Shown in pieces: positions 49,755 to 53,375 of a stretch of 64,000 bases of DNA (positions are counted from its first letter, which is position 1; the number at the start of each line of letters is the position of its first letter). Under the pieces are notes generated by a model. That model saw nothing but the letters and a program-made list of their open reading frames with translations, made no database searches and was not told where the DNA came from. The position numbers and the translations under genes are program-made. The DNA is taken from positions 62,001 to 126,000 of the forward strand of contig JANSYN010000001.1 in the NCBI GenBank assembly GCA_024742415.1. Reading direction: 5' to 3'. The DNA comes from Gammaproteobacteria bacterium (GTDB lineage Bacteria; Pseudomonadota; Gammaproteobacteria; Pseudomonadales; Halieaceae).

Positions 49755-51326
49755 CTAGCGCAACGTGTGCAGCTGTGACAGCACACCGCTGTCGGAACCG
49801 CGCTCGTGCCACTGCAGGTTGATCATGCGCAGGGCGGCCAGAATCGCGGCAAACACCTGGTTGGAATGTAACCCCCGGGTTTTATACTCGCGGCCGTCGC
49901 AATCCCAGGTGATCACGCATTCAGTCAGTGCGTTGGTGTGGCCGCCCTTGGGAATGCGTACCTCGTAATCCAGTAGCGCCGGAATCTCGAAATTGCGCGG
50001 CTTGAGCACTTTATTCATCGCATCGATGAAAGCATCAAAGCCGCCATTCCCCGAGCCTGACGCCTGTTCTTTCTTGCCGTCCAGTTCTACCCGAAGGCTC
50101 ACTGTAGACTGTAAATCCAGGCCGCTGGTGATCGAGCAATTGAGTAACTTGATATGGTGATACTCCTTTCCCTCAAGCACTTCAGCGATGATGAACGGTA
50201 AATCGTCAGCAGTGATCAGTTCTTTTGAATCACCGAGTTTGACGATGCGCGCCAGCACTTTTTTCTGGTTTTCCTCAGACAGGTTCAGCCCCAGCGCCTC
50301 GAGGTTTTTTGCAAGCGACGCCTTGCCACTCATTTTGCCCAGTGCATAGCTGCGTGATCTGGCGAACCGCTCGGGACTTAGCCGCGTTTCGTACAAACCG
50401 CCTTTCTGGTCGCCGTCGGCGTGGATGCCGGCTGTTTGTGTAAAGACATCCGCACCAATGATCGGCGCATTGGCCGGGACACGCTTGCCCGAAAAGGTCT
50501 CGACCATGCTGCTGAGCTGCACGATGTAGGATTCGTCGATGCTCAGTTCCAGCCCGAGCTTGTCACGCAGGACCACGGCAACTTCGGCCAGCGAGGCATT
50601 GCCTGCGCGTTCGCCCAGGCAGTTGACCGTGCAGTGTATGGAATCGATGCCGGCCTCGACGGCAGCCATCACATTGGCAGTGCCCAGACCGTAATCGTTG
50701 TGCGGGTGAAAATCGAACTGCTGCTGTGGGTAGCGGGCACGCATGTCGCTGAGGCTTGCATGCACCTCGGCCGGGGACATAACGCCCAGAGTGTCGGGCA
50801 GCATGAAGTGCCTGATGCCGCAGTCTTTGAGTTTGTCCATCATTAGATACACATACTCGGGGCTGTCCTTGTAGCCGTTGGACCAGTCCTCGAGGTAGGC
50901 ATTTACGCCAAGGCCACGCTCGAGCGCGTAGTCGACGGTGCGCAGGATCTCGCTGACATGTTGATCCAGGTTTTTGCCCAACTGTTCGCGACAGTGTTTT
51001 TCACTGCCCTTGGTCAGCAGGTTGATGACCCGACCGCCGGTTTCAACGATCCAGTCGACACTGAGCGTATGATCGACAAAGCCCAGTACCTCGATGCGCT
51101 CATCCAGGCCGCGCTCCCTGGCCCATGCGTTAATGCTGGAAACGGCATCCTTTTCACCCAGGGATACCCGGGCTGAGGCAACTTCAATGCGGTCGACCTT
51201 CAATAACTCCAGCAACGCCTTGGCCAGGTTGACCTTCTCGGCCGGCGAGAACGAGACGCCCTGCGTTTGTTCCCCGTCACGCAACGTCGTGTCCATCAGC
51301 TGGATATGTCGTTTGTCACTGCTCAT
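49755..51326 (-). CDS. 2-isopropylmalate / (R)-citramalate synthase family protein
   Basis: Acetyl-CoA-dependent DRE-TIM aldolase-type synthase of 523 residues. The metal and active-site start is MDTTLRDGEQTQGVSF; HPHNDYGLGTANVMAA and NCLGERAGNASLAEV complete the catalytic core. The C-terminal 150 residues carry the LeuA-type allosteric regulatory domain (SSDKR start, then SVSLRVELDGKK). RIEVASARVS resembles citramalate synthase-type members more than classic LeuA. It makes either 2-isopropylmalate (leucine) or citramalate (isoleucine). It converges with the dehydrogenase gene at 48557-49666. Confidence 0.88.
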   Translation of the reverse strand: MSSDKRHIQLMDTTLRDGEQTQGVSFSPAEKVNLAKALLELLKVDRIEVASARVSLGEKDAVSSINAWARERGLDERIEVLGFVDHTLSVDWIVETGGRVINLLTKGSEKHCREQLGKNLDQHVSEILRTVDYALERGLGVNAYLEDWSNGYKDSPEYVYLMMDKLKDCGIRHFMLPDTLGVMSPAEVHASLSDMRARYPQQQFDFHPHNDYGLGTANVMAAVEAGIDSIHCTVNCLGERAGNASLAEVAVVLRDKLGLELSIDESYIVQLSSMVETFSGKRVPANAPIIGADVFTQTAGIHADGDQKGGLYETRLSPERFARSRSYALGKMSGKASLAKNLEALGLNLSEENQKKVLARIVKLGDSKELITADDLPFIIAEVLEGKEYHHIKLLNCSITSGLDLQSTVSLRVELDGKKEQASGSGNGGFDAFIDAMNKVLKPRNFEIPALLDYEVRIPKGGHTNALTECVITWDCDGREYKTRGLHSNQVFAAILAALRMINLQWHERGSDSGVLSQLHTLR

Positions 51327-51426
51327 GCTAAACCTTTACGGGCCCGAAGACGGGCTGGATTGACGATAACACGCCATTATCCAACGATTGTGCCGCCATG
51401 TATACGCGCTGCGCCGGCGCTCGCGG

Positions 51427-52104
51427 CTACTGCAGCCAGCCACCGGCGAAGGGGATGGCCTGGCCCACGAAGAAATCGCTGTCGCCGGAAACAAGAAACA
51501 GGGCGAACAGCGCGTCCTCACGCCCGGTTGCGAGGCGCCCCAGGGGTACCTGCTTCATCATTTTTTGATACTGCTCGGTGCCAATCAGCTCCGGCGGGTA
51601 GTAGACAGGGTTTTCGACAAAGTTCTGCGCGATGAGGTTCACCTGCACATTGTGGCGCGCCGCCTCCTGGCCAACGGCCTTGACGTAACCTACCTGTGCG
51701 GCCCGTGCCGCACTGTACGCCGTTGCGGTGCGCACGGGTTTGAGTCCCGTTGCACTGCCATACACCACTACCTTGCCCGTTCCGCGCTCGTACATTTGCG
51801 GCAGCGCAGCACGGCACAGCGCGTGCAACGGGTGCACCATTACATCGAACATGCGGTGCCAGTCGTCATCACCAATATCGACAGCGGCGGCCTTGCCCGC
51901 CGGCGTGGCAAGATTGGCCACCAGGATGTCTACGTGTCCGGCCTCGGCGACGGCCGCCGCCGCTGCGCCGGCCTTGGTGAGGTCGCGGTGATCGGCGATG
52001 ATCGTGGCGCCGTGCTCCTGGAACAGCGCGCTCGTCGCCGGCCCCATATAATCGTCGGCCTGGGTCAGTAACACCCGCTTGCCGGCCAGTTTCTGTTCGC
52101 TCAT
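51427..52104 (-). CDS. Halohydrin dehalogenase-like SDR protein
   Basis: SDR-fold protein of 225 residues from ATG 52104. Instead of the Gly-rich NAD site it has TQADDYMG at 14-21, which fits the halohydrin dehalogenase signature T-x4-(F/Y)-x-G. The catalytic set is Ser117, Tyr130 and Arg134 (SATGLKPVRTATAYSAAR), fitting S-x12-Y-x3-R; normal SDRs have Lys where this has Arg. FVENPVYYPPEL matches the region that shapes the halide pocket in these enzymes. Such enzymes release halide from vicinal haloalcohols to give epoxides, without NAD. It is divergent from a thioesterase gene. The activity is inferred from motifs. Confidence 0.85.
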   Translation of the reverse strand: MSEQKLAGKRVLLTQADDYMGPATSALFQEHGATIIADHRDLTKAGAAAAAVAEAGHVDILVANLATPAGKAAAVDIGDDDWHRMFDVMVHPLHALCRAALPQMYERGTGKVVVYGSATGLKPVRTATAYSAARAAQVGYVKAVGQEAARHNVQVNLIAQNFVENPVYYPPELIGTEQYQKMMKQVPLGRLATGREDALFALFLVSGDSDFFVGQAIPFAGGWLQ

Positions 52105-52261
52105 TGCTGTGACTCCGTTAAGCCGGTGGGGGATCGCGATCGTGCCTGTGCGCGTTATCCACTGCACCGCGTTGACTGTGCTAATCTGCGCGGTTGCAGG
52201 CGCTGCCAGCAGCGCTGCGACCCATTCCCTGCTAACTGTTGATCAAAGGTACGTTCCCATC

Positions 52262-52648
52262 ATGCAAGATTTTTCCGTAACAATCACACCGCGATTCTAT
52301 GAAACCGATGCAATGGGCCATATCAATAACGCCACGCTGGCTGCCTGGTTTGAGGTTGCACGCGTGCGCTACATCGAAGCCCTTGCGGGTGACGGTGCGG
52401 CCGTTGGCAGGGACTGGATACTCGCCACCATTACCGTCGACTTTCTCGACGAGACATTTTACGGCTCCGATGTGGAACTGCGCATTGTTGATGCCAGCAT
52501 CGGCAATACTTCGCTCACGGTATTTTGTGAGATGTGGCAGGACAACCGCCTGACAGTGAAAGGCAAGGCGGTAGTGGTGCATATCGATTACGATGCGAAA
52601 CAACCACGCCGCGTGCCCGATGCGATGCGCAGACGCCTCTCCCCGTAA
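52262..52648 (+). CDS. Acyl-CoA thioesterase (4HBT hotdog)
   Basis: Hotdog thioesterase of 128 residues, near-standard length for YbgC/4-hydroxybenzoyl-CoA thioesterase-type proteins. TPRFYETDAMGHINNATLAAWFE holds the catalytic Asp region and the conserved Gly-His-x-Asn, quoted here only in part as ETDAMGHINN. FLDETFYGSDVEL and VKGKAVVVHID follow. It hydrolyses an acyl-CoA of unknown chain. ATG 52262 is chosen because the longer frame has no family match upstream. Confidence 0.88.
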   Translation: MQDFSVTITPRFYETDAMGHINNATLAAWFEVARVRYIEALAGDGAAVGRDWILATITVDFLDETFYGSDVELRIVDASIGNTSLTVFCEMWQDNRLTVKGKAVVVHIDYDAKQPRRVPDAMRRRLSP

Positions 52649-52841
52649 CGCCTGCCACTGATGGTAACGCGGGCAGCGCAAGACTACCCCCGCAAGCTGC
52701 GGGTTGGTTTAAAGGCGCAGGGCTGCTGTTAGCGCGCGCCACCGTGGAGGCTGGCAACGGCGTCGGGGTATCGTCGGGTCTGGCGATCGCACTCGCTACG
52801 GTGATTGCAGCGCAGTTAGCTCGGTTTAGTCACCACCGGCT

Positions 52842-53375
52842 TTAGCGTTGGCCCCACTGAAACAGGTTGAAAAAATTGTAGGACGGATCCTGTGGGCCGG
52901 GGCTGCCGATGTGTGAGCCTTCGATCATCGGGTGTTTGAGGTCTACCCGCGAGGGTTGGTCGATCGTCGCCCAGTCTGCCAATACCGCACGCTCAGCGAA
53001 CTTCCATTGCTGGTTGCGCCTGGCGTACTTGTCCAGGTAGCGACCGCCGATCAGTAAATCCAGGGGCGCGGTCTCCGTGGCCACCTGGTGATAGGCCAGC
53101 ACGTAGACCTCTCCCTCGGCGTAATCGCCATCGAGCTTGATGTTGATGTTGGTGATGTTGTGGTGCAGGATTTTCATCGGCGCCTGGATTTGCGGAAGCT
53201 GGTCGATGAATGCCATCGCCAGGCCCTTGAAAAACGCACCATGGTCGTCGGTGGCGTCCTCGTGATAGAGCGAACGCATGACGTCATTGTCGTGGCGGTC
53301 TGCCGCACGCGCATACGTGTAAAGCAGCTCGGTGATTTCGTGTTTATCGAGCATGGCTTGTAGTCGAGCATCCAT
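52842..53375 (-). CDS. NTF2-like (SnoaL_4 type) protein
   Basis: Cone-shaped alpha+beta protein of 177 residues in the NTF2/SnoaL superfamily. The N-terminus ITELLYTYARAADRHDND is typical of the SnoaL_4 branch that includes dehydratases and dehydrochlorinases with an Asp/His pair. Trp-rich WKFAERAVLADWATID is the C-terminal strand. No activity can be assigned. The gene starts at ATG 53375, sharing one base with the pdxJ stop, so it is co-transcribed with pdxJ. Confidence 0.82.
   Translation of the reverse strand: MDARLQAMLDKHEITELLYTYARAADRHDNDVMRSLYHEDATDDHGAFFKGLAMAFIDQLPQIQAPMKILHHNITNINIKLDGDYAEGEVYVLAYHQVATETAPLDLLIGGRYLDKYARRNQQWKFAERAVLADWATIDQPSRVDLKHPMIEGSHIGSPGPQDPSYNFFNLFQWGQR

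What the first reader, a model, noticed from the sequence alone, without database searches (positions are those of the whole stretch)
51427..52104. Both published halohydrin dehalogenase signatures in one SDR-like gene
The protein has T-x4-Y-x-G at 14-21 in place of the NAD loop and S-x12-Y-x3-R (Ser117, Tyr130, Arg134) as catalytic set. Both were checked against the bases. Ordinary SDRs have a Gly-rich loop and Lys. These enzymes are rare in genomes, and neither a haloalcohol pathway nor an epoxide hydrolase gene lies beside this one, so its natural substrate and reason for being here are open.
Basis: partly seen in the sequence, partly recalled or inferred. Interest (0 to 1): 0.75.

Follow-up and report, generated by a model that had tools for sequence, protein, structure and literature searches.

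The report
Halohydrin dehalogenase gene, B-like clade
This looks like a genuine halohydrin dehalogenase gene, an enzyme that turns halogenated alcohols into epoxides; it is an ordinary member of a known family, but in many of its relatives it sits beside genes that remove epoxides, which suggests what these enzymes do in nature.

Summary
Window 51427-52104 (minus strand, 225 aa) carries T-x4-Y-x-G (T14, Y19, G21) and S-x12-Y-x3-R (S117, Y130, R134). The nearest solved proteins are halohydrin dehalogenases (HHDHs), not NAD-dependent SDRs: HheB at 57.5% identity, then 7b73 at 49%. A tree places it in a supported clade with HheB. It is a new member of a known enzyme family; activity is inferred, not shown.

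It occupies a variable slot next to a citramalate-synthase-like gene; 2 of 18 genus genomes have it. Relatives' context is more telling. In its clade, 12 of 20 testable rows have a glutathione S-transferase (GST, two lineages) or epoxide hydrolase (EH, two families) immediately upstream on the same strand. Across both sister clades and others fetched, 20 of 50 loci have a GST within 1 kb, against 0.6 expected; 12 HheD-like loci have none.

Most likely it forms epoxides from vicinal haloalcohols, and unlinked GSTs or EHs remove them here. EH operons with HHDHs are published; the searches I ran showed no report of GST linkage.

The parts
51427..52104 (-). halohydrin dehalogenase gene (225 aa, HheB-like)
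   Evidence: translation; PDB phmmer; tree; alignment
52042..52065 (-). motif 1, T14-x4-Y19-x-G21, nucleophile-pocket loop in place of the Gly-rich NAD loop
   Evidence: T14, M20 and G21 invariant and residue 19 Tyr or Phe in the 28-row alignment
51703..51756 (-). motif 2, S117-x12-Y130-x3-R134 catalytic set
   Evidence: S117, Y130, R134 invariant in 28 of 28 rows
49755..51326 (-). citramalate-synthase-like gene, 100 bp downstream, co-directional; neighbour, probably not a partner
   Evidence: found in 11 genus genomes in which the HHDH search found nothing
52079..52648 (+). 4HBT thioesterase-like ORF (true start probably near 52262, by eye), opposite strand; neighbour
52842..53375 (-). SnoaL-like gene; upstream neighbour, found with pdxJ in several genus loci

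Best explanation
The gene encodes a cofactor-free halohydrin dehalogenase of the HheB-containing clade. Ser117 holds the substrate hydroxyl. Tyr130, activated by Arg134, removes the proton. The alkoxide displaces the neighbouring halide, which leaves through the pocket lined by the motif-1 loop, giving an epoxide plus halide (mechanism taken from established HHDH biochemistry, by homology). Its natural task is most likely detoxification or catabolism of small vicinal haloalcohols, with the epoxide then removed by glutathione conjugation or hydrolysis. In many relatives that second enzyme is the neighbouring gene. In this genome the candidates (about 18 GST genes, two EHN-type epoxide hydrolase matches) are unlinked. 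Shown: sequence, motifs, phylogeny, relatives' gene order. Inferred: activity, direction, substrate and the second step.
For: Both motifs. 57.5% identity to solved HheB, 48.9% to 7b73, 47.3% to 8xxb. Starred 22-row clade with HheB, apart from 7b73 and 8xxb. Catalytic set invariant in 28 of 28 rows. Purifying selection against the genus mate G127: dN 0.23, dS 1.33 by NG86, the latter near saturation. Context: in the 22-row clade, 12 of 20 testable rows (window included; the HheB reference and L101, whose contig starts inside the gene, left out) have a GST or EH as the immediately upstream same-strand gene. GST within 1 kb in 20 of 50 loci (L057, a partial gene, left out of the 51) against 0.59 expected from 1,063 GST_N_3 matches in 177.3 Mb. 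A GST model built from this genome's own GSTs gives 20 hits in the first kb and 10 in the next seven. Control: 2 of 88 SDR domain matches in this genome have a GST domain within 1 kb. Unlinked sinks in G000: 19 GST_N_3 matches in about 18 genes, two EHN matches.
Against: No enzyme assay. No GST or EH is near the gene in this window, nor in the genus mate G127. The GST type linked in the closest relatives occurs in 12 of 18 genus genomes, 10 of which lack a detected HHDH, so it is not a dedicated partner here. The eight Rhodospirillaceae-type loci have no GST or EH hit within 5 kb, and 12 HheD-like loci have neither in their flanks, so linkage is not a family-wide rule. A haloalkane dehalogenase or other halohydrin source was not searched for in the genome. 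Loci in one clade are not independent.
Confidence: 0.72

Rival explanations
1. The enzyme works mainly in the reverse direction in the cell: it opens toxic epoxides with anions (chloride or bromide, nitrite, cyanide, cyanate), so GST and EH neighbours are parallel epoxide sinks rather than the next step.
For: HHDH reactions are reversible and accept several anions (PMC4989007, abstract and section 4). Some host names are of marine bacteria (by recall, for example Halioglobus), which live in high chloride. Six alphaproteobacterial loci (L019, L020, L022, L023, L025, L027) carry an O6-alkylguanine DNA alkyltransferase-type gene 191-291 bp downstream, which fits epoxide stress.
Against: A halohydrin product is itself toxic and must be removed; no gene for that was recognised. 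The EH operon with HheC is read in print as haloalcohol detoxification (PMC11976700 passage).
Confidence: 0.15
2. Gene order is hitchhiking: GST, EH, glyoxalase, efflux and HHDH gather in general stress islands without a shared substrate.
For: Many of the 15 loci with the C2 GST share a wider block (glyoxalase, GST, HlyD/RND-type efflux, malate synthase G in some), with unrelated genes sometimes between HHDH and GST. In the window the gene lies in a slot that holds a Dus gene or other genes in genus mates.
Against: Four unrelated enzyme lineages (two GSTs, two EHs) take the same place, directly upstream and same strand, in the focal clade. GST hits fall from 20 in the first kb to 0 in the second.
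Confidence: 0.25
3. The protein is a classical NAD(P)-dependent SDR that happens to match the motifs.
For: It passes the Pfam SDR models.
Against: No Gly-rich loop, Arg for the catalytic Lys, nearest solved proteins are HHDHs by a wide margin.
Confidence: 0.02
4. The fold is kept but the natural role is not dehalogenation, for example another epoxide or alcohol chemistry on a physiological metabolite.
For: Two papers say natural substrates or functions are unsettled (PMC4989007 passage; PMC11976700 passages). Several relatives, the window among them, have no GST or EH nearby.
Against: The motif residues of tested HHDHs are all kept, and epoxide-consuming neighbours recur.
Confidence: 0.12

Closest known systems
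HheB, halohydrin epoxidase B (PDB 4zd6, 4zu3, 5b12)
   Same: 57.5% identity over 221 residues, both motifs, similar length, same clade in the tree
   Different: HheB has a long branch (1.12) in the tree; residues after the pocket differ (NFVENPVYYPP here, HWTQNKEYFWP in HheB); the HheB-producing strain was enriched on pollutants (PMC4989007 section 5)
HheD-type enzymes (7b73, which I recall as HheD2; 8xxb)
   Same: 47-49% identity, both motifs
   Different: separate supported clade (100/95), motif-1 aromatic is Phe, no GST or EH hits in the flanks of 12 HheD-like loci
HheC of Agrobacterium radiobacter AD1 with its epoxide-hydrolase operon
   Same: same chemistry expected; an HHDH-EH operon is published for HheC (PMC11976700 passage)
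   Different: here the linked enzyme in relatives is more often a GST, and nothing is linked in the window
Isoprene pathway GST IsoI with dehydrogenase IsoH
   Same: an epoxide is removed by a GST (PMC10057887 passages); the upstream GST of L009 has IsoI as its only NCBIfam match at E<=1e-5
   Different: that match is 37 bits against a cut-off of 300, no isoprene-type monooxygenase was seen next to the HHDH, and IsoH is NAD-dependent

Membership tests
Halohydrin dehalogenase | motif 1 T-x4-F/Y-x-G | tested here: met
   T14, Y19, G21; motif definition from PMC4989007 section 5
Halohydrin dehalogenase | motif 2 S-x12-Y-x3-R | tested here: met
   S117, Y130, R134, invariant in 28 of 28 rows
Halohydrin dehalogenase | closer to verified HHDHs than to NAD-dependent SDRs | tested here: met
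   HheB 4.4e-78, 7b73 1.5e-66; first 3-oxoacyl-ACP reductase 2e-20
Halohydrin dehalogenase | reversible dehalogenation of vicinal haloalcohols and epoxide opening by anions | not testable with these tools
   needs purified protein
Halohydrin dehalogenase | Rossmann SDR fold, homotetramer, halide site in place of NAD | not tested
HHDH subtype B | groups with HheB apart from other subtypes | tested here: inconclusive
   starred 22-row clade with HheB (96/95), but HheB is a long branch, the bootstrap had not settled, and subtypes A, C, E, F and G were not put in the tree as named references (6a41 only as a fragment)
Classical NAD(P)-dependent SDR | Gly-rich T-G-x3-G-x-G loop | tested here: not met
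   loop reads TQADDYMG
Classical NAD(P)-dependent SDR | catalytic Y-x3-K | tested here: not met
   Y130-SAA-R134
HHDH-GST or HHDH-EH operon | epoxide-consuming gene directly beside the HHDH gene | tested here: not met
   not met in the window; met, immediately upstream and same strand, in 12 of 20 testable rows of its clade

The most novel reading that the evidence does not exclude
Halohydrin dehalogenases of this clade are the first step of an undescribed glutathione-coupled pathway: HHDH makes the epoxide and a co-transcribed GST (replaced by an epoxide hydrolase in some lineages) removes it. This would give HHDHs a natural role without man-made pollutants; the window's copy would be a version that uses unlinked GSTs or EHs.
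Probability: 0.4. Interest if true: 0.65.

Novelty: new member of a known kind. Interest (0 to 1): 0.42.

Why it matters
HHDHs are valued catalysts whose natural role is unsettled. A 2016 review says only two of the then known HHDH genes lie in an operon with an epoxide hydrolase, and that other physiological functions cannot be excluded (PMC4989007, passage). The recurrent GST or EH gene directly upstream of many HHDHs of this clade turns that into a test: express the pair and ask whether the GST takes the epoxide the HHDH makes. It also offers ready-made enzyme pairs for biocatalysis.

Tried and rejected
Rejected: an NAD-dependent SDR. Rejected: the window neighbours as pathway partners. Eleven genus genomes without a detected HHDH have the citramalate-synthase-like gene; the slot beside it holds a Dus-type gene in 7 (L111, L127, L129-L133; one member, L129, scanned with Pfam, the rest by clustering), other genes in 3 (L126, L128, L135) and nothing before SnoaL in 1 (L134). 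Rejected: a dedicated GST partner in this genome; the homologous GST (47%) is at G000:C18 next to an ordinary SDR, and the type is found in 12 of 18 genus genomes. Not decided: TauD, HpaB-like, malate synthase G, molybdopterin oxidoreductase, transporter and other neighbours in relatives.

Limits. Gene calls in relatives are my own ORF picks by length and conservation, apart from the annotated L141. Pfam was run on representatives, not on every neighbour. The tree's bootstrap had not settled, and the SDR outgroups and the 6a41 fragment have long branches. The expected value uses rounded genome sizes and treats loci as independent, which they are not. The own-GST model used 16 of the 19 matches. 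The loci are outside the 50-locus count: of these 16, three have a GST 791-1459 bp away, L182 has none, and 12 I call HheD-like from 45-49% identity (not placed in the tree) have no GST or EH hit. L048 has two epoxide-hydrolase-model hits at 2.7 and 4.6 kb, not counted as adjacent.

Literature: halohydrin dehalogenase with glutathione and gene cluster, 0 papers; a six-term search with min_terms 3, 294 papers, 25 listed. From that list I looked at passages of PMC6100074 and PMC3414701, which hold both glutathione and a haloalcohol or halohydrin dehalogenase, and saw no GST-HHDH gene linkage; the others of the list with both words were not opened. PMC3414701 says (passage, 2012) that genes for the known haloalcohol dehalogenases seemed very rare. 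Schallmey 2014 (PMC4249193) is not held; two HheE searches gave nothing.

Full report
Observation. The ORF at 51427-52104 on the minus strand encodes 225 residues. Motif 1 (T14-QADD-Y19-M-G21) and motif 2 (S117-x12-Y130-x3-R134) are as reported. The start ATG has a GGAG ending 8 bases upstream, and the protein start matches L009 and L010. In 1,569 other ORFs of at least 150 aa, both motifs in order occur once, outside an SDR layout; 0 of 18 canonical SDR ORFs carry either. The gene is under purifying selection against its genus mate G127: 70% amino-acid identity, dN 0.23, dS 1.33.

Identity. Pfam and NCBIfam give only general SDR matches; the best NCBIfam score is 99 bits against a cut-off of 238. 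Against PDB sequences the best are HheB (4.4e-78), 7b73 (1.5e-66) and 8xxb (2e-62); then a drop to 6a41 (1e-30), other HHDHs and general SDRs near 2e-20. Pairwise identity is 57.5% to HheB, 48.9% to 7b73, 47.3% to 8xxb and 36.8% to a 6a41 fragment. The label HheD2 for 7b73 is recalled; passages of PMC5892878 describe Hhed2 as a gammaproteobacterial HHDH with 47% identity to HheB. In a 73-row tree the window protein lies in a starred 22-row clade with HheB (96/95), next to a 25-row sister clade, while 7b73 and 8xxb fall in a separate clade (100/95). HheB has a long branch and the bootstrap had not settled.

Distribution. One scan of genome contigs gave 57 loci; 51 of them have 50-73% identity, most titled as gammaproteobacterial or alphaproteobacterial metagenome-assembled genomes, with a few beta- and Chloroflexi records. 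In the window's own family 19 of 140 genomes have a match at E<=1e-45, in its genus 2 of 18, in its order 20 of 390 drawn genomes at E<=1e-60. One plasmid record of 72,556 matched at E<=1e-30 (Novosphingobium resinovorum pSA2, 60%). G034 and G035 agree with L009 and L010 in match position, the latter titled Halioglobus, so the family is probably Halieaceae (inference).

The window's locus. In G127 the homologue sits in the same place beside the citramalate-synthase-like gene. In 11 genus genomes without a detected HHDH this slot holds a dihydrouridine-synthase-type gene (7), other genes (3) or nothing (1). The neighbours here are therefore not evidence for a pathway. The genome holds 19 GST_N_3 domain matches, two EHN-type epoxide hydrolase matches and four alpha/beta-hydrolase matches to the L093 epoxide hydrolase, the best 35% over about half its length; none lies in the window.

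Context in relatives. GST genes recur beside HHDH: directly upstream and same strand in L009 and L010 (44 and 57 bp) and in six alphaproteobacterial loci (L019, L020, L022, L023, L025, L027; adjoining or overlapping ends); upstream same strand in L029 (101 bp); divergent in L015, L021, L030 and L051; and downstream after a glyoxalase-type gene in L032, L033, L035, L037, L039, L042 and L059. Representatives of these five lineages share at most about 31% identity in their best local match, where that match is 26 residues or longer. An alpha/beta-fold epoxide hydrolase (best PDB match of L093's copy 5ng7, 8e-38) is directly upstream, same strand, in L093, L094 and L095, and an EHN-type epoxide hydrolase in the Novosphingobium plasmid. 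In the focal 22-row clade, 12 of 20 testable rows have one of these immediately upstream on the same strand (8 GST, 4 EH). The eight without are the window, L092, L018, L040, L097, L098, L099 and L012.

Controls. A GST model built from 16 GST domains of the window's own genome, not from the neighbours, finds 20 GSTs within 1 kb of HHDH and 10 at 1-8 kb in 68 loci, in 1-kb bins 20, 0, 3, 0, 1, 2, 3, 1 with 132 to 92 kb of sequence per bin. From 1,063 GST_N_3 matches in 177.3 Mb of 50 host genomes, 0.59 loci would be expected within 1 kb; 20 of 50 are seen. Loci are not independent; five events instead of 20 would have probability about 3e-4 in the same model. In this genome 2 of 88 SDR domain matches (the HHDH among the 88) have a GST domain within 1 kb. 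Results against: 12 HheD-like loci have no GST or EH hit in their flanks, and the neighbours scanned from that group (GNAT, DnaT, PLD, GGDEF-EAL) look unrelated; the eight Rhodospirillaceae-type loci have none within 5 kb.

How it works. By homology to HHDHs (PMC4989007 section 4), Ser orients the hydroxyl, Tyr with Arg takes its proton, and halide leaves to the pocket formed by motif 1 and other loops, without NAD. The natural substrate is not known. The relatives' gene order points to an epoxide as the product that must be removed.

Known and new. An HHDH-EH operon is published for HheC, and by 2016 two HHDH genes were known in such operons (PMC11976700 and PMC4989007 passages). A GST that conjugates an epoxide is known from isoprene degradation (PMC10057887 passages). 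I found no report of GST-HHDH linkage in the searches (open-licence papers only; listings, and passages of two papers). The window gene itself is a new member of a known family.

Noticed in passing
L019, L020, L022, L023, L025, L027, 191-291 bp downstream of HHDH: An O6-alkylguanine DNA alkyltransferase-type gene (PF01035 on the L019 representative) lies on the same strand just after HHDH, with a GST and a TauD-type dioxygenase before it: fits a module against alkylating agents.
   Followed up: partly
L011, L016, L021, L028, L030, L051, downstream of HHDH: An HpaB-type flavin monooxygenase-like gene (165 bits against a cut-off of 480 for the L051 copy) follows HHDH on the same strand, second in L021; its substrate is unknown.
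   Followed up: no
L032, L033, L035, L037, L042, about 7.6-7.8 kb downstream of HHDH: Partial ORFs at the locus ends match the EHN-type epoxide hydrolase model built from L141; cut by the locus ends, so not examined.
   Followed up: no
window 51327-52841 and genus loci L126-L135, L111: The region between the citramalate-synthase-like gene and SnoaL/pdxJ is a variable slot in the genus: HHDH, a Dus-type gene, carboxylase-like genes, other genes or nothing.
   Followed up: partly
L141 7995-8672 and L105 8056-8724: Two HHDH homologues have Ser for Thr in motif 1 (SMAELYMG in L141, SSADRYMG in L105) with motif 2 intact; strict motif searches would miss them.
   Followed up: no
L054 5279-6286; L182 5784-7615: A TIR-domain gene lies upstream of one HheD-like gene, and AAA_21 plus DUF4276 genes lie beside another HHDH gene; both look like defence-type genes.
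   Followed up: no
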